From assembly GCA_022600195.1 (NCBI GenBank), contig JAHZKX010000021.1:1-64000 (forward strand): 64,000 bases of DNA, written 5' to 3'. The notes under the pieces are model-generated. The model was not told where the DNA came from and searched no databases. It saw only the letters and a list, made by a program, of their open reading frames with translations. Position 1 is the stretch's first letter. Every line of letters starts with the position of its first letter. Source of the stretch: Planctomycetota bacterium (GTDB taxonomy: Bacteria > Planctomycetota > Planctomycetia > Planctomycetales > Planctomycetaceae). The position numbers were made by a program, and so were the translations under genes. Positions 42,948 through 55,785 of this stretch are shown here, piece after piece.

Positions 42948-45140
42948 TCAATCTGGCTTCGCTTCGATAACCCGGTTTTTCATTTGAAATAAGACCGGAT
43001 GCCAAAATCGGAAGTGCGCTATCAACAACAGAATCAACAGTGTCACGCAACTGATGATCGCCCCAATCAAAAACCATCCCGATTGATACGCCCAGATTAC
43101 TTCGTGTTTGCCGACAGGGATTTTGACGCCACGATATATGCCATCAATCAGTTCTGCCTCAGCGGGTTTTCCGTCCACATAAACTTTCCAACCAGGGTAA
43201 TACAGGTCCGTCAGAATTAATGTGTCTTCCGTTGGCGTTTCTGCTTCAATAATCACTTCATTCGCCCGGTACGCTTTGATCGTCGCTGATTGATTTACCT
43301 CCGGTTGTGTCCAGGCGAGACGACCACGGCTCCCTTGAAGCTCATAAAAATAAAGTGGTTCATCGAAGCGTCCCCAGGCAGGATTGAGTACTGCATCATA
43401 GTCACTCCAGATTGGCTTGACCGGCCATTGGTCCAGTTTCAATGGATGCTGACTGAGGATATGAGTCACTCCTGCTTTCTGTAACCATTCAATTTGTTCG
43501 TCTGTCGGTTGGTCTTCTTCCTTGAAAGGCAGTGGCTCTGGCATCGCCAGCTTCGGATCAAAATACTGTTCCGGACCTATACCCAGATATACGGGAGTCG
43601 AAGACACGCCGATTAATGTTGGCAAGTTTGCTCCCGGGGCAAACAGTCGCACTGGCTTTCCAAATTCTTGAACGATTTTTCTGAGGGCACTTTTTTGAGC
43701 CTGCTTGATGGGAGGATTCGGAATAATGGTGGCATAAGTCACATAACGACTGACAACCCAGAAATCAGTGACTGTAAACAGACAGACGAGAGACACAATC
43801 AAAAGTTGAATGTGTTTGTTCCAGTTCACAATCAGGCGTTCCAGACTCACGCCGGCAATTACCGCAACTGAGAATGTCGTCACGATGCCATAACGCCCCG
43901 GTCCCGTAAAGAAACTAAAACCGGGTAGGTGTTTCGTCAAAGGCAGGAACCAACCTGGCGTATAAAGTAATGCCAACAGTCCGATCACCGCCAGTAGAAC
44001 AAGTCGTCGATCTCCGGTCCAAACGCGGCGCCAAGTGCCGAAAATCAGCAGCAATACAGCAGCAATTCCGAAATAGAGGTGTGCTTCCACCTGATTGGTC
44101 GCGTCTGCACCCGGTGCAAGACCCGCGTCGAGGTTGACTTCATACGGATACCAGGACCAGGGGGCGACAACTTGGGATAGATACCAGACTGGAATATGTC
44201 CGTAACCGGGTTGATGTGATGACTCACCGACTTCCGCTCGCTGGCTTAACTGCTTCAATTCCCACGTTGGTCCCAGCTGCACAGCCGACAGAGCATAAGC
44301 GGAGACAAAAGCCAACAGCAACAAAATGACGGTAAAACGCCGAATGGGTTTTAATTGCTCAGTTGTTTCATCGCGACTCAGCCAGATTCGGGCGGGGATA
44401 TAAACGAGTAACATCAACTGTGTAATAAACGCCAGATTGAAATGCCCCGGCAAGATCTGCATGGCTAAGGCAAAACAGAGGAGAATCGGGTAGCGCCAAT
44501 TACGGGTTTGAAAAAACGATTCGACGCACCACAGTGCCAAAGGCAGCCAGGCACCACCGATGATGGCCCATTCCAGACAGATACGTGAGGGGAACCAGCC
44601 GTATGTGTAAACCAGTCCTGCAAATAGAGCTGCGATCAGGGAATATCCCAGACGTCTCACATACAGCGCGGTAAACACAAACGCCAGAATGTAATGCAGA
44701 ATCTGAACAAAGTTGTAAGCTGTATTGACTGGAAAAAAACGGTAAGCAAAATAATTGAATGGATAAAAAGCGCCGGTCTGGCTCTCTGCAACTAAGGGGA
44801 AACCATGGCCGATATTGGAATTCCAGAGGGGAAATTCACCCGCCTGCAAGCGTTCGGCAAAGAACGTTTTTTGTGGGAAAAAGTAAGAATAAAGATCGCC
44901 TCCAATCAGACCGCCGCCCGACCAGAGACCATTCCAGAAGATCCACGTCAATCCAACTGACGCCACTAAAATGATGACAGTAAATACAGATGCACTGAGG
45001 GGAGCAGCTTCTTCCGGTCGAGGCGGTTTGGTTTTCTTTTTCCGGGAATGACTCAAGCAACTGAACCTTGTGTTGACGAAAGGGATAGCGTCTGACTGGC
45101 AAGGTTCTATTCTAGGCAGCCCACGATAATGTCTCAACAC
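42948..45140 (-). CDS. YfhO-like polytopic membrane protein
   Basis: A 730-residue membrane protein with an N-terminal cytoplasmic segment, about 12 hydrophobic helices between about 52 and 500, an extracytoplasmic beta-rich domain (about 510-690), and a last helix near 695-715. GGDLYSYFFPQKTFFAERL, the first-loop acidic motif, and VDGKPAEAELIDGIYRGVKIPVGKHEV near the C-terminus match the YfhO/GT-C glycosyltransferase-like family, which transfers sugars from lipid carriers. The start is a GTG at 45140. It follows the TIM-barrel gene by 15 bp, so it may be the distal gene of the microcompartment transcript, though a functional link is doubtful. Confidence 0.82.
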   Translation of the reverse strand: MLRHYRGLPRIEPCQSDAIPFVNTRFSCLSHSRKKKTKPPRPEEAAPLSASVFTVIILVASVGLTWIFWNGLWSGGGLIGGDLYSYFFPQKTFFAERLQAGEFPLWNSNIGHGFPLVAESQTGAFYPFNYFAYRFFPVNTAYNFVQILHYILAFVFTALYVRRLGYSLIAALFAGLVYTYGWFPSRICLEWAIIGGAWLPLALWCVESFFQTRNWRYPILLCFALAMQILPGHFNLAFITQLMLLVYIPARIWLSRDETTEQLKPIRRFTVILLLLAFVSAYALSAVQLGPTWELKQLSQRAEVGESSHQPGYGHIPVWYLSQVVAPWSWYPYEVNLDAGLAPGADATNQVEAHLYFGIAAVLLLIFGTWRRVWTGDRRLVLLAVIGLLALLYTPGWFLPLTKHLPGFSFFTGPGRYGIVTTFSVAVIAGVSLERLIVNWNKHIQLLIVSLVCLFTVTDFWVVSRYVTYATIIPNPPIKQAQKSALRKIVQEFGKPVRLFAPGANLPTLIGVSSTPVYLGIGPEQYFDPKLAMPEPLPFKEEDQPTDEQIEWLQKAGVTHILSQHPLKLDQWPVKPIWSDYDAVLNPAWGRFDEPLYFYELQGSRGRLAWTQPEVNQSATIKAYRANEVIIEAETPTEDTLILTDLYYPGWKVYVDGKPAEAELIDGIYRGVKIPVGKHEVIWAYQSGWFLIGAIISCVTLLILLLIAHFRFWHPVLFQMKNRVIEAKPD

Positions 45141-45155
45141 TCAAGACAGGAGTTC

Positions 45156-46349
45156 TTACTCGCCAAACGTGCGATTCAGACGATTCCGATGGTAAGCCAA
45201 CCGTTCTTCGGAACTCATTGAAGCAAAATCAGGAGCCTCAGTGACGTTTTTCGCTGATTTTTCCTGTGTGGGTTTCCCATTTTTTTGTTGTGTGGGAAAG
45301 CTGAAGGTTTTGCCATCTTCACCACCATAACTCATCACTGCAGTCTGATAGGTGAGATCGACGTCTAAACTGCGCGTCGGTTTAATGTCCAGTTCCTGCA
45401 GTACGCCATGATAGGCTTTTACCGCTTCGATCGGCTGAATTTTGTCTTCTACCAGAAACCGCAAAAACTGAATGAACGCCAACTGGTGCTCGGCTTGATT
45501 GATTTTTCGTCCGAACAATGCCACGCGTGCCCCATATTTACGGGCATCATAGATTAATTGGAACGCATCCAGTGTGGTTCCCGCTGAGCCACCCAGAATT
45601 CCGACAATCAAATGCGGATCATAGGCAACCAGTTCTTGCATGGCCCGTGGTCCATGATAAACCATCTTCAAAAATGTAGGCCGCCCTGCTGAAGCGACAC
45701 CTGCCAGAGTACGGGCAATCAAATCGTTGATAAATCCGGGAGCCATATCCGCGGAGACCGCATTGCTGATATTAGGGTCAAAAATTTCCAGGAAGTGGCG
45801 GAACTTTTTGCGTTCAGCCTCTTCCCGAAACTCTTTATAGCGTTCCAGCGTTGCAAGATCTTCTTCAAGATTATTGTTAAATGTGACTGAGTACAAACCA
45901 AGATCAGCGCCATAAGCGCGTTCTTCCGGTTTACAGTCCAGATGCCCACACATGATGTGATCCAGACTCGCAGAGCGAAATGGCTTGGCCGGCGATAAAT
46001 GAACGACGCCTCCACGCGGTACATGTACGTCGGTCGTATCATTGGCTCGTGCCGCTGGTGTAATCGGCGAATTGTCAAATAAGCGTTCGTCGATTGTCAG
46101 TTTTTCACTCGTGCTGGCTGACATCAAAACAATATCTACGATTTCCTGCTGGATCACTTCACGAATCTGCTGCCGGTATTCGGCCAGCGTTTTATATTTG
46201 AGTTCCTGATCATGCCGTTCAGGAGATAACCCAGGCGCACCAATTCCAAACGCCATATCAGCGTCCTTGGCATCGGCAATGATAAACTCTTTCGAACCGC
46301 TGGGATCAGCGTGAATCGATCGAATTTTTCTATCAAGTGATTTTTCCAT
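45156..46349 (-). CDS. Aldolase-like TIM-barrel protein of the BMC operon
   Basis: A 397-residue soluble protein. The C-terminal two thirds resemble DeoC/LacD/DhnA-type class I aldolases: FLKMVYHG with K228 as candidate Schiff-base lysine, LIVGILGGSAGTTLDAFQLIYDARKYGARVALFGRKI split around 247-282 as the phosphate-binding glycine strand, and the usual helix ending. The N-terminus is unusual, and the C-terminal 45 residues are polar. It lies 75 bp downstream of the lactate/malate dehydrogenase on the same strand. If active, it could cleave or form a sugar phosphate related to the pathway. No encapsulation-type helix is visible. The assignment is by fold pattern only. Confidence 0.65.
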   Translation of the reverse strand: MEKSLDRKIRSIHADPSGSKEFIIADAKDADMAFGIGAPGLSPERHDQELKYKTLAEYRQQIREVIQQEIVDIVLMSASTSEKLTIDERLFDNSPITPAARANDTTDVHVPRGGVVHLSPAKPFRSASLDHIMCGHLDCKPEERAYGADLGLYSVTFNNNLEEDLATLERYKEFREEAERKKFRHFLEIFDPNISNAVSADMAPGFINDLIARTLAGVASAGRPTFLKMVYHGPRAMQELVAYDPHLIVGILGGSAGTTLDAFQLIYDARKYGARVALFGRKINQAEHQLAFIQFLRFLVEDKIQPIEAVKAYHGVLQELDIKPTRSLDVDLTYQTAVMSYGGEDGKTFSFPTQQKNGKPTQEKSAKNVTEAPDFASMSSEERLAYHRNRLNRTFGE

Positions 46350-46424
46350 CAGACATTCATTTCAAATTAAAACGCAACAAAAATAGAATCAAATGTAATT
46401 TTTAGGACACCGCTTTCGCGTTGA

Positions 46425-47351
46425 TCAGCCAAGAACCTTCCTCAGCGTTTCCCCCAGCACTTTTCCAGACTGAGTCAGCGCCAGTTGTTCTTTCGGCCAG
46501 AGATCGATCTCAATATGTTTTACTACTCCGGAACGACCCATGACTGTGGGTACGGAGATACAAACATCTCGCAGACCAAAGGCTCCGCTCTGTAATGAAG
46601 AAACAGGGAGAATTCGCTGTTGATCCAGGGCAATGCAATGTACAACATCAGCAATACTGACACCGACCGCAAAACCGGCTCCCCCTTTTTTCTTGATGAC
46701 TTCAGCTCCACTGCCGCGAGTTTTCTTTTCTACTTCAGCAATCAGTGAGGGGCTACTGCCGGGAAATTTATCCAGAGGCAATCCACCCACTTGAGCAGCC
46801 GACCAGATCGGAACCATACTGTCGCCATGTTCTCCGAGAATCAACGTGGAAACCTGAGAGGGCGGCACATCCAGACGGGCAGCCAGCATGCTGCGCAGTC
46901 GCGTGGTATCCAGAACAGTGCCGAGACCAATCACCTGCTCCGGTGGTAGTCCCAGTTCTTTCATTGCCAGATAAGTCAACACGTCAACCGGATTCGAAAC
47001 AACAAATACAATCGCATCCGGTTTCGTTCCCACACGCTTTACGTCAGCCAGAATGTTTTTGAATAATTCCACATTCCGGTTAATTAAATCGAGACGGCTT
47101 TCTTCTGGTTTACGACGCAGACCGGCGGTGATCACAATCACGTCGCTGTCTTTGACGAGCTCCGTTCCACCAGCGTAAATTTTCTGGTCTGCGGTTAACG
47201 AGCTGCCATGCAACAAGTCCAGAGCCTGGCCTTCGACCAGATCCTGGTTCACATCGACCAGCGCAATTTCCCGGACTATGCCTCCGGCCTGTAATGCAAA
47301 GGCGGCACAAGAACCAACCAGTCCACCTCCACCGATAATACTTACATTCAT
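46425..47351 (-). CDS. Lactate/malate dehydrogenase family protein (BMC operon)
   Basis: A 308-residue NAD-dependent 2-hydroxyacid dehydrogenase. The Rossmann GGGGLVG is at 7-13, the active-site loop ITAGLRRKPEESRLDL at about 74-89, D148/R151 and the catalytic H175 in LGEHGDSM. The specificity position that is Gln in lactate dehydrogenases and Arg in malate dehydrogenases is R80, which favours a dicarboxylate substrate on family rules. In PVM operons this gene is thought to help recycle NAD for the aldehyde dehydrogenase. It follows the aldolase by 59 bp. The true substrate (malate, lactate or another) is open. Confidence 0.88.
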   Translation of the reverse strand: MNVSIIGGGGLVGSCAAFALQAGGIVREIALVDVNQDLVEGQALDLLHGSSLTADQKIYAGGTELVKDSDVIVITAGLRRKPEESRLDLINRNVELFKNILADVKRVGTKPDAIVFVVSNPVDVLTYLAMKELGLPPEQVIGLGTVLDTTRLRSMLAARLDVPPSQVSTLILGEHGDSMVPIWSAAQVGGLPLDKFPGSSPSLIAEVEKKTRGSGAEVIKKKGGAGFAVGVSIADVVHCIALDQQRILPVSSLQSGAFGLRDVCISVPTVMGRSGVVKHIEIDLWPKEQLALTQSGKVLGETLRKVLG

Positions 47352-47410
47352 GATCTATTCTTTTCTATATGACGATGTAATGTGTCTTTTTTGAAAACAG
47401 GGAAATCAGA

Positions 47411-48301
<891 letters not shown>

Positions 48302-48373
48302 TGTCTCTACTCCAAACATTTAATAAAAAAATTGTGTTTTCAGTAACTGTGATTCAATTGGTAAAATGTAGTC

Positions 48374-48655
48374 TTAGTAAACTTCAACCTGATCCAGGAT
48401 TGCCGATACATAGGCGTCGATCGGTTTGGCATCAGGATGAAAGGGAGCGGATGCTTCTGCGCCTTCGCTGACAGCAATCTGGCAGCCAGACGAAGCACCC
48501 AACTCATCATAAATAACAAATGGTTCTGTTGTCTTTTTCTTGTTCGTGTTCAGTTCATTACTCTTTAAAGGAATCGCAACCAGCCAACGGGCACTATCCA
48601 GACTGGGGTGCTTGCGTGAAAGCGTTACTTTTCCAATCACTTCTGCGATTTTCAT
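48374..48655 (-). CDS. BMC-P shell vertex protein (EutN/CcmL family)
   Basis: A 93-residue pentameric shell protein that caps vertices of the microcompartment. IGKVTLSRKHPSLDSARWLVAIPL is characteristic, split here as VIGKVTLSRKHPSL (6-19), and the C-terminal AYVSAILDQVEVY matches the family's VVAIVDxV ending. It carries a slightly longer polar central loop (KSNELNTNKKKTTEP) than its two paralogues. The ATG overlaps the previous gene's stop by 4 bp (48652-48655). This is the last of the three BMC-P genes in the operon. Confidence 0.94.
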   Translation of the reverse strand: MKIAEVIGKVTLSRKHPSLDSARWLVAIPLKSNELNTNKKKTTEPFVIYDELGASSGCQIAVSEGAEASAPFHPDAKPIDAYVSAILDQVEVY

Positions 48656-49344
48656 AATTCATTTCCATTTGCAGGCACGCCTGCATTTACAAATGTTTTG
48701 ATCAAATTTCTCAGTTCGATAAACGATTTCTGTAACGGGTTAACACAAATCAGATTTGGGCTCATTTGTGAAAGAACGTTTCTTAACTGGTTCATGTCCT
48801 GAATCGAGGCAGCTCGAATTTTCTGATTACGATTCGCCAGACAGGCCGCCTTCTCTGCTGCTTCAGCAAACAGAATAATTCCTGTAGCATCCGCACGACA
48901 CAAACTGCTGATCGCATCATTTACTGACTCTTCCAGTGAAGCACTCAATTCCTGTGACCAACGTGTATTGGTCTGTTGCTCAATCGTCTCCAGTGCATTT
49001 TCAACCGTAGATGAGTTTGATAAAACAATTGCCCGCCAGGGTGTTCCCTGCTCTTTTGAAGAGGCAACAGCAGCTGCACGATGGATGCTGATATTAAACT
49101 CACGCAGATAATCTTTCGCAGATGGAGTCAGGATCGATCCGGCAGCAATACCGACGACTGATTGACCTTTTATCTTTTCTGCCAGTAAATCTGCAGTAAT
49201 GACTTTGTCTGACAATACAACCGAAGAATCAGGCGTGGAATCAGATGGTGCGATTCCCGATGATTGCCTGCCACTTCCCATTTGGGAAATGGTCGACAAT
49301 ACATTGGCGACTACCTGATTGACCAACTCTTCAGAAAACTGCAT
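48652..49344 (-). CDS. BMC operon protein of unknown function with targeting-like helix
   Basis: A 230-residue protein. The N-terminus FSEELVNQVVANVLSTISQ (3-21) is an amphipathic helix like those that target PduP or PduL to the lumen, followed by a Ser/Gly-rich linker. The body begins with VITADLLAEKIKGQSVVGIAAGSILTPSAKDYLREFNI, similar in phrase to the LTPSAxDYLxE segment found in ethanolamine/propanediol cobalamin adenosyltransferase-like proteins, then an alpha/beta region with no catalytic motif I can name. It is flanked by two BMC-P genes, and its stop overlaps one of them. Cargo status is inferred from the helix and position. Confidence 0.75.
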   Translation of the reverse strand: MQFSEELVNQVVANVLSTISQMGSGRQSSGIAPSDSTPDSSVVLSDKVITADLLAEKIKGQSVVGIAAGSILTPSAKDYLREFNISIHRAAAVASSKEQGTPWRAIVLSNSSTVENALETIEQQTNTRWSQELSASLEESVNDAISSLCRADATGIILFAEAAEKAACLANRNQKIRAASIQDMNQLRNVLSQMSPNLICVNPLQKSFIELRNLIKTFVNAGVPANGNEL

Positions 49345-49376
49345 TACGTTATAATTGACTTTTCTAGTATCTAAAA

Positions 49377-49634
49377 TTAACGATCAATAACACCGAGAGT
49401 GGCCCAGCGAACGGGAGTATTATTCACACCCACCATTTCTCGCACAGCTGCTCCGTCTGAAGTCAGCAGGACAGTATCACCCTTGCCACACCCCAGTTGA
49501 TCGATGACCAACTCAGGAAATCCCTCAGCGTTGCCTTTGATGTCGAGTGTTTGAACCAGCAATAATCGCCAGCCATCCAGACTGGGATGTTTGGCGGTTG
49601 CCGTTGCTCGTCCTATGACTCGTCCTGTCAACAT
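49377..49634 (-). CDS. BMC-P shell vertex protein (EutN/CcmL family)
   Basis: An 85-residue vertex protein. LTGRVIGRATATAKHPSLDGW at the N-terminus and LGVIDR at the C-terminus are family hallmarks. The central DQLGCGKGDTVLLTSDGAAVREMVG supplies the glycine-rich pore-side loop. I start at ATG 49634 because EutN/CcmL proteins begin within two residues of GxVIG; the frame extends upstream to 49709 without another family residue. It lies between the aldehyde dehydrogenase and the unknown targeting-helix gene. Confidence 0.93.
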   Translation of the reverse strand: MLTGRVIGRATATAKHPSLDGWRLLLVQTLDIKGNAEGFPELVIDQLGCGKGDTVLLTSDGAAVREMVGVNNTPVRWATLGVIDR

Positions 49635-49718
49635 TTGATTTACATTCCTGAGCAGAAAATTTGTTGTTCCCAATAATTTATTATTCAATGACAGATAAAC
49701 TTCCGCCAATGTTCTGAA

Positions 49719-51149
49719 TTAAATCACTCGTAAGTGTCCTACTGTGGTAGAACGACGGAAGCGAGTGAATGTCAGTGGGTTCGTGACTCCCTCACCGGTC
49801 GGAGTCGCAATACTGAAGGATGCATAACCTTCGCCACCGTTGCCCAGAGCGGCTCCACAGGGACCATTCTGCACAAACAATGTCGTGTCCATGATGCGAC
49901 CCATTTTTGTGATCGCTTCAATATTTCGTGAGTGAATCATGCTGGTGTGGCGGAATCCGTGTTCGAATTCTTTGGCCAGCTCAATTCCATGATCTGCATT
50001 TCGGCAACGAATAAAGGGTACAAAAGGCATCATCTGTTCTTCAGGCACGAACGGGTTGTTCGTGTCGGTTTCGCCGTAGAGCAATTGTGTTCCAGGTGGG
50101 ACACTTACTCCGACCATACCAGCCAGCACGTCTGCATCTTTTCCAATCAGATCACGGTTCAGAACAGCGTGTCCACCCGGTTCTGTAGGAGCCGAAAATG
50201 CCAGCGATGTCAATTGAGCGGTCTGTTGAGCATTCAACTGGTAACCACCATGACGTCCCATTGCTGACATGAGTTCGTCAAAGATACTGTCAACAGCGAA
50301 GACCTCTTTTTCGCCAATGCACAATAGGTTGTTGTCGTAGGCAGCTCCAATGATGATCGATTTGGCAGCGTTGTCGATATCAGCCGTTTCATCAACCACA
50401 ACTGGTGGATTACCGGGGCCAGCAACAATCGCACGCTTTTTGGCAGCCAGAGCAGCACGGGCGACTCCCGGACCACCGGTCACGCATAAGAGGGGAATTC
50501 CCCGATGATTGAAAATTTCATCGGCGGTTTCCAGAGTGGGAGTTCCCAAAATGGTTACCAGGTTCTGTAAACCAGTTGCCTGATAGATGGCCTGGTTGAA
50601 ACGTCGTACCCCTTCGCAGGCAATTTTTGCGCCGCCAGGGTGCGGGTTGACGACCAGCGTATTGCCGGAAGAAACCATGTTCACAAAGTTGCAGGCCAGT
50701 GTGGGAAGCGAGTGAGTCACTGGAGTGATCGCTCCGATGACACCGAAGGGAGCGTATTCGGTCAGACTGACCCCGTAATCTCCAGAAACTGCTTCGGTCT
50801 TCAGAAATTCCATACCGGGTATGTTTTTGATCAGATGCAGTTTTTCAATTTTATGATCGAGGCGACCAATATTGGTCTCTTCCAGTTCCAGGCGACCCAG
50901 TTCATCGGCCTGTGTAGCGCAAATCTGTCGTACAATTTCAACTGCCTTCGCTCGATCTTCCATAGAGGCATTCAACAGTTGGTTTTGTCCCTCGGTCGCA
51001 GCAGCCACTGCCTGATCGACGCAACTGAATACACCCCAGTCCCCGTCTTGGTTCGCTGCGGGCGAAGTGGAACCGTAACCACCACGCTGTTTCAGTTGTG
51101 CTAAAACTTCCTGTACGACACTTCGAATGGCTTCTTCAGTCGCCTGCAT
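49719..51149 (-). CDS. CoA-acylating aldehyde dehydrogenase with targeting helix (PduP-like)
   Basis: A 476-residue enzyme that oxidises an aldehyde, here probably lactaldehyde, to acyl-CoA with NAD. Residues 1-20 ([19 protein letters not shown]) form an encapsulation-type amphipathic helix followed by a Gly/Ser linker. The catalytic C277 lies in [12 protein letters not shown], the cofactor loop is [12 protein letters not shown] (223-234), and the early [10 protein letters not shown] segment matches EutE/PduP. An excellent GGGGAG site precedes the ATG. It is the central oxidising enzyme of the microcompartment. Confidence 0.94.
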
Positions 51150-51219
51150 AATTTATTTCTCCCCGAGTCGTCTGACTTTGAGCTTGAACACTCAACGCCA
51201 CCGTCTCAGTCTTTCAAAA

Positions 51220-51747
51220 TCAGTTTTGGTTTTCCAGGTTATAGTTTTCCATCTGGTTGCGAATCCATCCGTCCAGTTTTGTCTTCGTTGGTATCGAGAA
51301 GATCATTCCCAAAAGTAAAATTGCAACTGGGATAAAAGCCAGCCTTTGATTTTCCACCATCACGGCGACGAGATTGAGCATGGCGGCACCTTCCAGTAAC
51401 GCCATTCCAATAATCAATCGAACCATGAAAACCTGATAGAAGTTTCCCAGCATCTGTTCTTCATCGTTGTTCGCTTCTGTTTTTGCAGTTTGCATGGTTT
51501 GTGCAAACTGCGTGCGGGCAATGAGATTTGGAATAATAAATCGCAGAACCAACATCAATGCCGCCATTCCCATGCCTGCAAAAGTGAGGACTGGTAAACC
51601 GGCATCCGGTTTCATTCCATTGATTTGAATACTGACCACAACCCCAAACACAACCACACCAACAATCATGGCGAACCAGATGATCATCATGACGCGATGT
51701 CGTTCTTGCAGAGTTGGCTGTGGTAATGGACTGGACATGGAATACAT
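51220..51747 (-). CDS. Four-helix membrane protein inside the BMC operon
   Basis: A 175-residue integral membrane protein with hydrophobic helices at about 20-42 (MMIIWFAMIVGVVVFGVVVS), 55-78, 103-128 and 135-152, a charged loop (AKTEANNDEEQ) between the second and third, and a short polar C-terminus ending in NLENQN. I know no family for it. ATG at 51747 is chosen; ATG at 51738 is equally possible, and the longer frame up to 51891 overlaps the BMC-P gene. It sits between a shell gene and the aldehyde dehydrogenase. A role in transport or in tethering is conceivable but unproven. Confidence 0.7.
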   Translation of the reverse strand: MYSMSSPLPQPTLQERHRVMMIIWFAMIVGVVVFGVVVSIQINGMKPDAGLPVLTFAGMGMAALMLVLRFIIPNLIARTQFAQTMQTAKTEANNDEEQMLGNFYQVFMVRLIIGMALLEGAAMLNLVAVMVENQRLAFIPVAILLLGMIFSIPTKTKLDGWIRNQMENYNLENQN

Positions 51748-51761
51748 ATTCTTAAGAGCGA

Positions 51762-52076
51762 TTATTTTTCCGTTGAGTTGAAAATTTCGTTTGTTCCAAT
51801 GTGAACCTGATCGATGATGCCCACGATGGCCGCGTCGATGGGCAATGTTTTGGTCTCTTTTGTGAAACGGGCCGATGACCCTTGCACACACAGCACGACC
51901 TCACCCTGCCCTGCTCCCACGGTATCAACGACGACAAAAGATCGTCCTGTGGGAGTCAGATCACTCTGGTCTTTTTCGTTGACGCGCAACGGCTCGACAA
52001 TGAACAGCGTCTGGCCTACCATCGCTTCGACTTTCTGTGACGAAACGATGCTACCGGTAATACGTCCTATAAACAT
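51762..52076 (-). CDS. BMC-P shell vertex protein (EutN/CcmL family)
   Basis: A 104-residue vertex protein. The N-terminal FIGRITGSIVSSQKVEAMVGQTL and the C-terminal VGIIDQVHI are family hallmarks, and DTVGAGQGEVVLCVQGSSAR is the conserved pore-side loop. It has a 12-residue polar extension after the last strand. The ATG follows GAGGAG. It is the first BMC-P gene of the operon, 49 bp after acetate kinase. Having three divergent BMC-P genes suggests mixed or specialised vertices. Confidence 0.94.
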   Translation of the reverse strand: MFIGRITGSIVSSQKVEAMVGQTLFIVEPLRVNEKDQSDLTPTGRSFVVVDTVGAGQGEVVLCVQGSSARFTKETKTLPIDAAIVGIIDQVHIGTNEIFNSTEK

Positions 52077-52125
52077 CGAACCAACTCCTCAAAAATCCTG
52101 AAAAGGATGACCGTCACTTCCGGCG

Positions 52126-53316
52126 TTAAGAACGACCTTCGATGACTTCCACTGTTTGTCTGCCGACCACAATTTCTTCATTGGTCGGTACAACCCAGAT
52201 TTGCACCTGACTGTCGTCTGCCTGGATCTGCGCTTCGTTAGAAGCGACTTTGTTCCGTTCGGCATCTAGGCGGATTCCCGCCCATTCCAGATTGCTACAA
52301 ACTTTTTCTCGTAAACTCACGCTGTTTTCACCGATTCCACCCGTGAAAACAATCGCATCCGCTCCACCAAGTACCGTCAGGTAAGCTCCCAGGTAATGTC
52401 GGATTGCAGAGTGAAACACGCTAAGTGCCATTTCTGCCCGTTCGTGACCGTTGGCTGCCGCTTCCTCCAGATCGCGACAGTCGCCACTTAATCCGCTCAT
52501 TCCCAATAGACCACCCTTGCTTGACAGGTCTTCCAAAAGTTCCGCTAGAGATTTTCCAGTGGCTTTTATCAAAACTGGCAAAGCAAACGGATCAAAATCA
52601 CCCACACGGTTATTGTGAGGCAATCCTGTTTGGGGACTCATTCCCAGACTGTTGGCTTTGGAAACACCACCTTGCATGGCACATAAAGAACTACTTCCCC
52701 CCAGGTGACAGGAAATCACCCGCAGGTCATCCCTGCCAGTTAACTCGGCCATACGAGTGCCGATATAACGGTGACTGGCACCATGAAAACCCCACCGCTT
52801 GACTTCGTATTCTTCCTGCCATTCAAAAGGTATGGCATAGGTACGATTTTCTGCAGGGATGGTTTCATGGAAAGCCGTTTCCAGTGCGGCAACTAACGGA
52901 ATTTCAGGAAAGGCCTGACGCAGTTGTCGCATGGCTCGGGCATACGGAGGGTTATGAGCAGGGGCTATATCTGCCAACGCCTCCATCTTGGTCAGTAATT
53001 CTTCATCTACCAGACGAATGCCACTTAAGTTTCCGGCAAAGACCGCTTTGAAACCAATTCCCGCGACTTCATCTGCTGAACTGAGACAACCCCATTCGGA
53101 ATTGGTCAATTGAGACAGACATAAGTTGACGGCGGCTGCATGGTCGGGAACATTTTCTGTGTTTTCCTCCCGATGCTCGCCAATTTCGACAAAGCAATGG
53201 CTTTGTGCTTCGCCAATACGATCGATGCCCCCACGTGCAAGCTGCACTTCAGCGGGCATATCGAACAGGCGATATTTGAAACTGGTGGAACCTAAATTGG
53301 CAACTAGTACTTTCAT
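52126..53316 (-). CDS. ackA: Acetate/propionate kinase family protein (BMC operon)
   Basis: A 396-residue ASKHA-fold kinase that turns acyl-phosphate plus ADP into acid plus [18 protein letters not shown] opens the protein, HNPPY lies near 120, the signature [12 protein letters not shown] near 179-190, CHLGGSSSL near 210, and [10 protein letters not shown] near 327. There is no encapsulation-type helix, so it may act outside the shell on lactyl- or acetyl-phosphate made by PduL. It lies between a BMC-H and a BMC-P gene and is clearly part of the operon. Confidence 0.94.
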
Positions 53317-53416
53317 TGCAGGAATCCATTCTGTGACATAAAGACTGGTGTTTCAACGTCCTTTTTCCCGATCGGCACAACGCATGATTTTCGGGAAGAA
53401 CCAACAGTACATTCTC

Positions 53417-53686
53417 TTACATAAAGTGTGACATCAAACTTTCAGCGGGACGTGCAATCACGTGGGCTCCTACCAGTTCTCCAATTTGAGAAGCAGCAGA
53501 TGCACCGGCATCAACTGCAGCGCGAACTGAGCCGATATCCCCTTGAATAACTGTGGTCACGTACGCACCACCAATTTGAATCTGGTCAACCAGAGTCACG
53601 TTAGCGGCTTTGAGCATGGCATCGGATGCTTCAATTTGAGCAACCAAACCTTTTGTTTCAATCAGACCAATTGCTTCTGAACTCAT
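53417..53686 (-). CDS. BMC-H shell protein (second copy)
   Basis: An 89-residue hexameric shell protein that tiles the facets. EAIGLIETKGLVAQIEASDAML opens it, and GDIGSVRAAVDAGASAASQIG and HVIARP complete the domain. The pore-loop region reads QIGGAYVTT, different from the KVGSGLVTG of its neighbour, so the two pores may pass different molecules. I use ATG at 53686 with GAGG seven bases upstream; the frame remains open to a TTG at 53809, giving a 41-residue extension that I do not believe. It follows the first BMC-H gene by 141 bp. Confidence 0.94.
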   Translation of the reverse strand: MSSEAIGLIETKGLVAQIEASDAMLKAANVTLVDQIQIGGAYVTTVIQGDIGSVRAAVDAGASAASQIGELVGAHVIARPAESLMSHFM

Positions 53687-53827
53687 TTTGTCCTCATTTT
53701 TTTTAATTGTGATGGGTTGAGCTGAATTTCCTGTGGCTTCATACCAGTTAAACGTCAACTGGTTATGATCTTCGTCGAGTCGATCAGATTCAGGATTTTC
53801 AGCCGTCAATGTTGGTAACCCGTAAAG

Positions 53828-54127
53828 TTATTTCTTGGCAGCAGTAGAATTTTTCGGCAGAATGCTGGCAAGTTCTTCGTGAGGACGTGGAATGACTTGA
53901 ACGCTAACCACTTCGCCCACTTTACTGGCAGCAGCAGCACCCGCATCCACGGCAGCTTTGACAGCAGCAACATCACCGACAACAAAACCGGTGACCAGTC
54001 CGCTACCCACTTTTTCCCAGCCAATCATTTGTACGTTGGCAGATTTCAACATTGCATCGGCGGCTTCAATCAGGCTGATCAGCCCTTTTGTTTCCACCAT
54101 TCCCAGGGCTTCCATTGCTTTCGCCAT
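53828..54127 (-). CDS. BMC-H shell protein (first copy)
   Basis: A 99-residue hexameric facet protein. [23 protein letters not shown] opens the BMC domain, followed by the pore loop [33 protein letters not shown] and the C-terminal [10 protein letters not shown] short basic tail (KNSTAAKK) extends past the domain. A good AGGAGAACTGACTC site precedes the ATG. It is 132 bp downstream of pduL, a gap long enough for a promoter or a processing site that could raise shell-protein expression. Confidence 0.95.
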
Positions 54128-54259
54128 GAGTCAGTTCTCCTTTTAGAGATAGTTAAAAAAACAGTTCATTATTTACTCAGAATCGAAATTCAATCCTGAA
54201 ACAGGTATCAAGCAAACTCGCTGATAGAGTGATCAGACCAATTTGCTTCAGATTTTGTG

Positions 54260-54964
54260 TTAGCTGTGTTTACATTTACAGCCTTCAGGTACAAACAGTG
54301 TGACGGAAGAGGCATGATCCAGGTCAACTGCGTTTCCTTCATCGGTATCGATGTGAACTTCCAGCTTGACTTCCGGATTTTCGCGAACCACGACATCTTC
54401 CAGAACTGTAGTGCAACCCTGCGATTCAATTCGCAGGTGTAACTGGTCACCGTTGGCACATTTGTAAAAAGCACAGTCGGCAGGCGACATGTGTACGTGT
54501 CGGGCAGCACGGATGACTCCTTTATCCAGCTCGACAACACCTTTAGGGCCCATCAATACACAACCGGGTGTGCCTTCAAGGTCACCACTGATCCGGATGG
54601 GAACATCCAGTCCCAGTGAAATCGTGTCGGTAAAAGCCAGTTCTACCTGAGTATCACCGCGGCATGGTCCTAAAACGCGTACATTGGGAATCATTCGGCG
54701 ACGCGGCCCGACAATGGCCACGGTCTGTGTCGCTGCAAAGTAGCCATCCTGATACAGATCTTTCTGTACCTCAAGTTGGGCCCCTTTACCAAACAGAACC
54801 TCAAGATGTTCTTGCGAAAGATGAATATGTCGGGCAGAGATATTCACAACCAGTGGATTCGGTGCACCAGTGGTGGCTGCTCCACCTCCCAGTTGCTGTG
54901 TCAATGCTTGACGAACCAGTTGTTCTACCTGAGTGCGTGATATTGAATTTGTAAGTTGTGTCAT
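54260..54964 (-). CDS. pduL: PduL-type phosphotransacylase with targeting helix
   Basis: A 234-residue enzyme that swaps CoA for phosphate on an acyl group, regenerating CoA inside the shell. Residues 4-26 ([20 protein letters not shown]) form an encapsulation-type amphipathic helix and linker. The two beta-barrel PduL repeats follow, with the zinc-site phrases [10 protein letters not shown] (41-50) and AARHVHMSP near 154, and [15 protein letters not shown] between them. The C-terminus CKCKHS is Cys/His-rich. It is the first structural gene after deoR, 59 bp downstream. Confidence 0.94.
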
Positions 54965-55023
54965 AATAAACGGATCTCAATTTCTTGAATTGGATTAGTT
55001 GTATCTGCGAAAATAACTATGTG

Positions 55024-55785
55024 TTATGTTTCTACGATCGTCAGTTCAATTCCTGCTTTTTGGATGACGGACTTCCATTTCTCCGAGATTCCATCATCGA
55101 CTACAATATGGTCTACCTTGTTTAACGGACATAAATGAGCGAGGGCTGAGTGGCCAAATTTGGTGCTGTCTGTCACAACAATTACTTCTTCTGCTGCTTC
55201 AAACATTTGTTGTTCCGTTTCCACCAGCAGCATGTTGCTGTTGTAAAGTCCGTTCTCTGTTATGCCTCCAACACTGATAATCAATCGCCTGACATGTACG
55301 CTTTTCAGCGAATCAACTGCCGTCTTGCCTAACGCGACTCCTGTTTTGGGAAACAGAAAACCGCCAATCAACATCAGATCGATATGAGGCTGATTCACCA
55401 ACAGGTTGGCGATTGGCAATGAATTCGTCACGACCTGAAGTTGTTTTCCCGCTAGTTGACGTGCCACTTCCAATGTCGTTGTGCCGCCATCCATGAGCAC
55501 AGCCTCTCCTGGAGAGATCATGTCGGCTACAGTTTGTGCAACCAACCTCTTTTGCCCAGAAGACATAAAAGAGCGATCTTCAAAGGTTGCCAATGACTCA
55601 CCACTATAAGCAGCTCCGCCACGGGTTCGACGTATCTGACCGATTCCGTCAAGATACTCCAAATCCCTTCGAACAGTAGATTCAGAAGCACCTACAGAAT
55701 CCATTAAATCCACAAGAGACACATATCCCTTGTTTTCGACAATCTTTAAGATGCTTTCCCGTCTTTCGTCAAGCAACATTGACAT
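55024..55785 (-). CDS. DeoR-family transcriptional regulator of the BMC operon
   Basis: A 253-residue regulator. The N-terminal helix-turn-helix (1-57) reads DERRESILKIVENKGYVSLVDL and SESTVRRDLEYL, the DeoR signature. The C-terminal sugar-phosphate-sensing domain includes MDGGTTTLEVARQL near 98-111, VTNSLPIANLL, and VVTDSTKFG near 200. DeoR members are mostly repressors released by a phosphorylated sugar, so a fucose/rhamnose-derived phosphate is a plausible effector. A very strong AGGAGGAG site precedes ATG. It heads the operon on the same strand and probably controls itself through the boxes at 55856-55982. Confidence 0.93.
   Translation of the reverse strand: MSMLLDERRESILKIVENKGYVSLVDLMDSVGASESTVRRDLEYLDGIGQIRRTRGGAAYSGESLATFEDRSFMSSGQKRLVAQTVADMISPGEAVLMDGGTTTLEVARQLAGKQLQVVTNSLPIANLLVNQPHIDLMLIGGFLFPKTGVALGKTAVDSLKSVHVRRLIISVGGITENGLYNSNMLLVETEQQMFEAAEEVIVVTDSTKFGHSALAHLCPLNKVDHIVVDDGISEKWKSVIQKAGIELTIVET

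What the first reader, a model, noticed from the sequence alone, without database searches (positions are those of the whole stretch)
42948..55785. Complete PVM-type bacterial microcompartment operon
Seen: fourteen co-directional genes with two BMC-H, three BMC-P, PduL, aldehyde dehydrogenase, acetate kinase, class II aldolase, a lactate/malate dehydrogenase and a DeoR regulator. Known: PVM microcompartments of planctomycetes degrade fucose/rhamnose-derived lactaldehyde. Inferred: the same here. No sugar kinase or isomerase is in the window, so those steps are encoded elsewhere.
Basis: partly seen in the sequence, partly recalled or inferred. Interest (0 to 1): 0.8.

Follow-up and report, generated by a model that had tools for sequence, protein, structure and literature searches.

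The report
Planctomycete sugar-degrading microcompartment operon with extra aldolase
This looks like an ordinary planctomycete gene set for a protein-shelled compartment that breaks down fucose- and rhamnose-type sugars; its last gene encodes a widespread second aldolase-like protein whose tail tracks with the compartment and whose role is untested here.

Summary
Fourteen same-strand genes (55785 down to 45156) encode a PVM-type metabolosome in a Gimesia-like planctomycete: DeoR, PduL, two BMC-H, AckA, BMC-P, a membrane protein, AldDH, BMC-P, PvmL, BMC-P, class II aldolase, LDH/MDH and a 397-aa protein (here ALD1). The first 13 are collinear with the locus of a genome whose contig lengths equal those I recall for Planctopirus limnophila. 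The ORF at 42948-45140 (YfhO-like) is a genus-level neighbour. As a PVM locus this is ordinary. Two points go further. (1) ALD1, not named in the finding, looks like a divergent class I sugar-phosphate aldolase. It is in 123 of 198 genomes of the class, 121 of which carry BMC-P, and in some Verrucomicrobia, but has no match in the P. limnophila-sized genome. A linker plus C-terminal tail is on every operon-encoded copy examined and absent from the three copies in genomes without BMC-P. (2) PvmL is an encapsulation-type helix joined to a decayed RpiB-like domain. The fucose/rhamnose reading rests on homology. A rhamnulokinase lies elsewhere; four isomerase families gave no match, but the P. limnophila-sized genome also lacks the fucose isomerase family, so that absence is weak evidence.

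The parts
55024..55785 (-). DeoR-family regulator (PvmA-like)
   Evidence: PF00455/PF08220; collinear with G077
54260..54964 (-). PduL phosphotransacylase with N-terminal encapsulation-type helix; Tyr at the PVM-typical position
   Evidence: PF06130 235 bits; alignment to 5cuo
53828..54127 (-). BMC-H shell protein 1
   Evidence: PF00936 95.4 bits
53417..53686 (-). BMC-H shell protein 2 (ORF opens at 53809; likely ATG at 53686)
   Evidence: PF00936 89.1 bits; start by my reading
52126..53316 (-). Acetate/propionate-family kinase (AckA)
   Evidence: PF00871; TIGR00016 over cut-off
51762..52076 (-). BMC-P shell protein 1
   Evidence: PF03319 99.5 bits
51220..51747 (-). Small membrane-type protein of unknown function (membrane nature read from the sequence), also at this place in G077
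   Evidence: no Pfam/NCBIfam match; 36% match in L091
49719..51149 (-). CoA-acylating aldehyde dehydrogenase with N-terminal encapsulation-type helix
   Evidence: NF011927 581 bits over cut-off; helix moment
49377..49634 (-). BMC-P shell protein 2 (likely start 49634)
   Evidence: PF03319 82.7 bits
48652..49344 (-). PvmL: N-terminal encapsulation-type helix, short PDU/EUT-like motif, decayed RpiB-like C-terminal domain
   Evidence: TIGR02536 piece; profile A5 hits RpiB structures, best E 2.4e-9; 15 of 19 members hit PF02502 at E<1; Foldseek top hits RpiB/LacAB
48374..48655 (-). BMC-P shell protein 3
   Evidence: PF03319 70.1 bits
47411..48319 (-). Class II fuculose/rhamnulose-phosphate-type aldolase with C-terminal encapsulation-type helix; signature enzyme
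   Evidence: PF00596 169 bits; fuculose-phosphate aldolase structures among hits
46425..47351 (-). Lactate/malate dehydrogenase family; Arg where 1a5z L-LDH has the Gln of 'QKPGETR'
   Evidence: PF00056/PF02866; alignment to 1a5z
45156..46349 (-). ALD1: 397-aa divergent class I aldolase-like TIM barrel + linker + C-terminal tail helix

Best explanation
It is a PVM-type metabolosome operon. By homology, a class II aldolase cleaves 6-deoxyketose-1-phosphates (from rhamnose and/or fucose) to DHAP and L-lactaldehyde inside a BMC-H/BMC-P shell; AldDH makes lactyl-CoA, PduL makes lactyl-phosphate, AckA makes lactate plus ATP, the LDH/MDH-family protein regenerates NAD+, and DeoR controls expression. 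All these steps are inferred. The confidence below is for this part. A second part, which I hold at about 0.45: the organelle also has a second aldolase, ALD1, a Schiff-base (class I) ketose-phosphate aldolase whose C-terminal tail ties it to the compartment and which lets further ketose-1-phosphates feed the same AldDH-PduL-AckA core. PvmL is probably a non-catalytic core or adaptor protein derived from an RpiB-type isomerase.
For: PVM type: full gene set; 13-gene collinearity with G077; PduL Tyr. ALD1 fold: of 31 rows (L014 and L024 are the same gene) 25 hit ADH-synthase model NF005556 and 18 hit TIGR01949 at E<=0.01; AlphaFold TIM barrel, pLDDT 72.6, best PDB matches ADH synthase with DHAP/FBP, LsrF, archaeal FBP aldolase and YihT; D26, K28, D29, K228 and R281 invariant in the 31 rows. 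ALD1-BMC link: 121 of 123 ALD1 genomes have BMC-P, against 37 of 75 without ALD1; ALD1 within 10 kb of the printed BMC-P in 71 of 110 genomes; same place in 7 of the 15 verrucomicrobial loci fetched. Tail: on all 34 tree rows labelled operon-linked, absent in the three genomes without BMC-P; 33 of 33 strong tail hits in 59 genomes lie in the ALD1 frame. Substrate class: some untailed or unlinked copies sit by sugar kinases, a D-lyxose-type isomerase or an aldehyde dehydrogenase.
Against: No expression, growth or microscopy data. No match for four fucose/rhamnose isomerase families in the genome. ALD1 has no credible Pfam match (31 rows) and sits far below NCBIfam cut-offs; profile and sequence searches found no sound PDB relative. 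The ALD1 tail helix is polar (mean hydrophobicity about -0.5), unlike the PduL, AldDH, PvmL and class II aldolase helices, and its helical moment is no higher than that of ends with no expected targeting role, such as the LDH C-terminus. 37 of 158 BMC-P genomes lack ALD1, so it is dispensable. 7 of 10 untailed copies are in genomes that have BMC-P. Neighbours of unlinked ALD1 are mixed. The association test ignores phylogeny, and BMC-P presence was not typed as PVM genome by genome.
Confidence: 0.8

Rival explanations
1. ALD1 is an ordinary cytosolic class I FBP aldolase or DHAP-handling enzyme that merely clears the DHAP made by the pathway; the tail has another role.
For: Closest folds include archaeal FBP aldolase and ADH synthase bound to FBP/DHAP; 2 of 31 rows hit NF040816 class I FBP aldolase weakly; the tail is more polar than the other helices of the operon.
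Against: Co-occurrence with BMC-P in 121 of 123 genomes; absent in 75 of 198 genomes, so not housekeeping; tail missing in the three genomes without BMC-P. Whether the genome has another FBP aldolase was not searched.
Confidence: 0.3
2. ALD1 is not catalytic in the compartment but a structural or regulatory protein that kept the barrel.
For: Very low similarity to characterised enzymes; another cargo-like protein, PvmL, has lost RpiB catalytic residues.
Against: K228, R281 and the 26-29 cluster are invariant in 31 rows, including an alphaproteobacterial one at 40% identity.
Confidence: 0.15
3. The locus mainly serves a sugar other than fucose or rhamnose (for example pentuloses giving glycolaldehyde), since no known rhamnose/fucose isomerase was found.
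For: No PF02952, PF06134, TIGR02629 or TIGR02635 match; xylulokinase on the same contig; lyxose-isomerase family plus ketohexokinase beside ALD1 in L039 and L054, and by clustering in L055.
Against: The P. limnophila-sized genome G077 is not among the PF02952 matches either, although that species is reported to use fucose and rhamnose (PMC11958385, passages); a rhamnulokinase over its cut-off is present; PduL carries the lactyl-type Tyr.
Confidence: 0.15

Closest known systems
PVM BMC of Planctopirus (Planctomyces) limnophila, pvmABDEGHIJKLMNO
   Different: ALD1 is the 14th gene here; G077 has no ALD1 match at E <= 0.001
PVM-type loci of Verrucomicrobia
   Same: Same core genes with ALD1 after LDH or aldolase in 7 of 15 verrucomicrobial loci fetched
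   Different: A BMC-H copy after AckA and DeoR on the other strand where that end is in view (6 of the 7); no PvmL match
SPU and SPU-like BMCs
   Same: SPU pairs a PF01791 class I aldolase with RpiB; SPU-like pairs a class II aldolase with RpiB-like, PduL, AldDH and AckA (passages of PMC4207490 and PMC8217296); here ALD1 and PvmL are distant counterparts
   Different: Neither protein reaches the Pfam families; the PvmL catalytic Cys/His positions are changed; shell set and core are PVM
ADH synthase / LsrF / archaeal class I FBP aldolases
   Same: Fold and lysine-strand region of ALD1
   Different: About 15% identity in the structural alignments, scores far under cut-offs, extra linker and tail

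Membership tests
PVM-type metabolosome | Class II aldolase PF00596 signature enzyme | tested here: met
   169 bits
PVM-type metabolosome | DeoR regulator, acetate kinase, LDH/MDH-family dehydrogenase in the locus | tested here: met
PVM-type metabolosome | AldDH and PduL core | tested here: met
[quoted passage not shown]
PVM-type metabolosome | Gene order of the characterised cluster | tested here: met
PVM-type metabolosome | Tyr/Phe for Gln77 in PduL (majority of PVM loci) | tested here: met
   Tyr by alignment to 5cuo; numbering matched by me
PVM-type metabolosome | Shell proteins in PVM subclades of published trees | not tested
   the published subclade models are not among the libraries on hand
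PVM-type metabolosome | Induction and polyhedra on fucose/rhamnose | not testable with these tools
   needs culture and microscopy
SPU metabolosome | PF01791 aldolase and PF02502 isomerase | tested here: not met
   ALD1: no PF01791 match in 31 rows; window PvmL: PF02502 13.1 bits against cut-off 24.7
Class I (DhnA/LsrF-type) aldolase | TIM barrel with Schiff-base lysine | tested here: inconclusive
   fold met; K228 invariant and in the stretch aligned to ADH synthase; its role is inferred
Encapsulation peptide | Terminal amphipathic helix on a flexible linker, BMC-linked | tested here: inconclusive
   low-confidence linker 338-370 and helix 380-395 in the model, linkage, but low hydrophobicity and an undiscriminating moment
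RpiB isomerase | Catalytic Cys and His | tested here: not met
   window PvmL has Ala and Gln at the aligned places (residue roles recalled)

The most novel reading that the evidence does not exclude
Most PVM-type microcompartments of the window's class (planctomycetes) and some of Verrucomicrobia are two-aldolase organelles: besides the zinc aldolase they carry a Schiff-base ketose-1-phosphate aldolase (ALD1) held to the compartment by its own type of tail, which widens their diet beyond fucose and rhamnose. The model strain in which PVM was worked out lacks it, and PvmL is the fossil of an SPU-like RpiB partner.
Probability: 0.3. Interest if true: 0.65.

Novelty: new member of a known kind. 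Interest (0 to 1): 0.4.

Why it matters
The locus itself is a textbook PVM operon. The useful part is a conserved, BMC-associated, aldolase-like protein without a Pfam family that gave no match in the genome I take for the strain in which PVM function was tested, so the published pathway may be incomplete for the planctomycetes and verrucomicrobia that carry it. It also gives a testable link between PVM and SPU-type compartments.

Tried and rejected
Rejected: YfhO (42948-45140) as part of the system (seen only beside Gimesia-type loci among 48). Rejected: filing the locus as SPU (Pfam not met). Rejected: prokaryotic ketohexokinase as a general partner of ALD1; 5 of 198 class genomes have PF25270 over its cut-off and the own genome has no match. 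Rejected: absence of FucI as evidence against fucose use, because G077 and G057 are not among the matches either. Rejected: the tail as a general planctomycete tag; 33 of 33 hits with E <= 2.1e-6 in 59 genomes lie in frame in or just after the ALD1 match, and a pattern scan of the fetched loci showed no convincing other carrier. Nowhere: PDB sequence searches for ALD1 and two untailed homologues; promoter/terminator scan (18 vs 13.3 and 13 vs 11.2 in shuffles); literature searches for PvmN/PvmP names and a second PVM aldolase, of which I saw only the top 10, 15 and 12 listings of 130, 75 and 69. Erbilgin 2014 is not held and the supplement of Sutter 2021 was not readable (no look-ups allowed); its methods say unassigned proteins were also clustered, so ALD1 may already be drawn there as an unknown.
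Full report
Observation. Fourteen genes on the - strand between 55785 and 45156 form one co-directional unit. Pfam and NCBIfam identify DeoR, PduL, two BMC-H, acetate kinase, three BMC-P, CoA-acylating aldehyde dehydrogenase, class II aldolase and an LDH/MDH-family protein. Three members have no strong family: a small membrane-type protein (51220-51747), PvmL (48652-49344) and a 397-aa protein (45156-46349) that I call ALD1. The own-genome search gave three BMC-P matches, all here. The window belongs to a Gimesia-like planctomycete: its ALD1 is 88-90% identical to loci L044-L046, two of which are titled Gimesia, and groups with them in the tree.

Type. Axen 2014 (PMC4207490; [quoted passage not shown] All are met. 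Genome G077 has contigs of 5,423,075 and 37,010 bases, which I recall as the sizes of P. limnophila DSM 3776; its locus L091 carries the window's first 13 genes in the same order at 34-80% identity, matching the 13-gene pvmABDEGHIJKLMNO described in PMC11958385 (passages). PMC4784909 (passages) reports that most PVM PduLs have Tyr or Phe in place of Gln77; the window's PduL has Tyr where 5cuo has the Gln of PGQFA (residue numbering matched by me).

Upstream steps. The genome has three FGGY kinases over the cut-off: a glycerol-kinase-like one (named from its sequence only), a xylulokinase on the window's contig, and a rhamnulokinase on contig C83 (532 bits against a cut-off of 527.95). No FucI C-terminal domain, RhaA, TIGR02629 or TIGR02635 was found; other isomerase families were not searched. 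PF02952 gave matches in 69 of 198 class genomes, and neither G077 nor G057 is among them, so its absence here does not argue against fucose use. The isomerase remains unidentified.

ALD1 distribution. A search with the window protein found ALD1 in 123 of 198 genomes of the class; BMC-P was found in 158 of the same 198. 121 of 123 ALD1 genomes have BMC-P against 37 of 75 others (Fisher p 2e-17; phylogeny not corrected; the BMC type of these genomes was not checked one by one). Of the 123, BMC-P places were printed for 110: ALD1 is within 10 kb in 71, on another contig in 28, and farther on the same contig in 11; 11 places were not printed and 2 genomes have no BMC-P match. G077 has no ALD1 match. 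A scan of named genomes gave 28 loci: 7 of the 15 verrucomicrobial ones have ALD1 at the end of a PVM locus (several of the other 8 lie on short contigs), and one is from an alphaproteobacterium, Celeribacter, at 39% identity. Of 27 of those 28 genomes searched, 26 have BMC-P; Celeribacter does not.

ALD1 nature. Single-sequence scans give weak matches to LsrF and ADH synthase; of 31 rows (two, L014 and L024, are the same gene) 25 hit NF005556 and 18 hit TIGR01949 at E <= 0.01, and Pfam gives nothing credible. The AlphaFold model (mean pLDDT 72.6, pTM 0.73) is a TIM barrel, then a low-confidence linker (338-370) and a helix (380-395). Foldseek puts ADH synthase complexes with DHAP or FBP, LsrF, archaeal class I FBP aldolase, tagatose-bisphosphate aldolase and YihT in its top 50 (E 8e-10 to 5e-7). 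D26, K28, D29, K228, R281 and H314 are invariant in the 31 rows; that K228 is the Schiff-base lysine is inferred from its place in the stretch aligned to ADH synthase.

The tail. The consensus PDFAxMTSxERLAYHRxRLxRxFG closes ALD1 after a linker of variable length. The tree has 69 rows: 58 with the tail, 10 without, one cut by a contig end. Dropped before the tree: L004 (the window's own copy), L067 (cut by a contig end), L014, L015 and L019 (same genes as L024, L025, L026) and L016-L018, which are separate genes and all have the tail. Two of the 58 (L029, L053) were assigned by eye and L110 by a widened pattern. All 34 rows that I labelled operon-linked have the tail, and so do L017, L018 and L021, which lie within 10 kb of BMC-P (L021 was labelled lone in the script). 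Of the 10 untailed rows, nine have no pvm genes in the DNA fetched around them; the tenth, L068, starts at a contig edge, so its linkage is unknown. L051 looks frame-shifted at its end. Three untailed rows come from genomes with no BMC-P match (L038, L039, L069) and seven from genomes with one (L037, L040, L051, L068, L103, L104, L105). The label needs 5 changes on the tree against a mean of 9.5 in shuffles. A tail profile searched in 59 genomes gave 33 hits with E <= 2.1e-6, and 33 of 33 lie in frame in or just after the ALD1 match. Against a standard encapsulation peptide: the helix is polar (mean hydrophobicity -0.54 to -0.55), whereas those of PduL, AldDH, PvmL and the class II aldolase range from -0.29 to +0.29; the helical moment does not discriminate, since the C-terminus of the LDH scores highest.

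Substrate hints for ALD1. In L039 (no BMC-P in its genome) ALD1 is followed by a D-lyxose-isomerase-family gene and a PF25270 ketohexokinase; L054 has the same pair upstream, and L055 too (its isomerase by clustering with the other two, not scanned). Celeribacter has ALD1 in a run with an FGGY kinase, a GlpD-like enzyme, an ABC sugar transporter (read from sequence) and a sugar-binding regulator. L037 has an aldehyde dehydrogenase 41 bases downstream, L038 a PfkB kinase upstream, L034 a galactokinase-family gene upstream. Other unlinked copies have unrelated neighbours. This suggests, but does not show, a ketose-phosphate aldolase.

PvmL. Its profile matches RpiB structures (best E 2.4e-9), 15 of 19 members hit PF02502 at E < 1 (best 5.6e-8; the window's own protein only 0.097), and the model's top Foldseek hits are RpiB/LacAB (mean pLDDT 71.9). 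At the aligned catalytic Cys and His (roles recalled) the window protein has Ala and Gln. With its N-terminal helix it looks like a non-catalytic core protein of isomerase descent. SPU loci pair a PF01791 aldolase with RpiB, and SPU-like loci pair a class II aldolase with an RpiB-like protein, PduL, AldDH and acetate kinase, so PVM may be a relative of these; this is inference.

Verdict. The locus is a new member of a known type. The parts worth a second look are ALD1 and PvmL. I could not check whether the supplement of Sutter 2021 or the paper of Erbilgin 2014 already shows ALD1; the listings that I saw did not point to it.

Noticed in passing
window 46425-47351: The LDH/MDH-family protein has Arg where L-LDH 1a5z has Gln in the QKPGETR motif, a change that I recall as malate-type specificity; how such an enzyme would reduce lactaldehyde is unclear.
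   Followed up: partly
window 51220-51747: A small membrane-type protein lies inside the operon between BMC-P1 and AldDH and has a match at this place in the P. limnophila-sized genome (L091) and some others; no family found.
   Followed up: no
L069 2531-11919 (Celeribacter): An untailed ALD1 homologue in a sugar-transport gene run with FGGY kinase, GlpD-like oxidoreductase and a sugar-binding regulator: an unassigned sugar or polyol pathway.
   Followed up: partly
L039 8426-11163; L054 8137-11254; L055 504-4719: ALD1 + D-lyxose/mannose-isomerase family + PF25270 ketohexokinase: a possible ketose-1-phosphate aldolase pathway outside the BMC operon.
   Followed up: partly
G021:C1:3679045-3680079: ALD1 copy with an in-frame stop and no strong tail hit, far from the BMC-P gene: possibly a decaying gene.
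   Followed up: no
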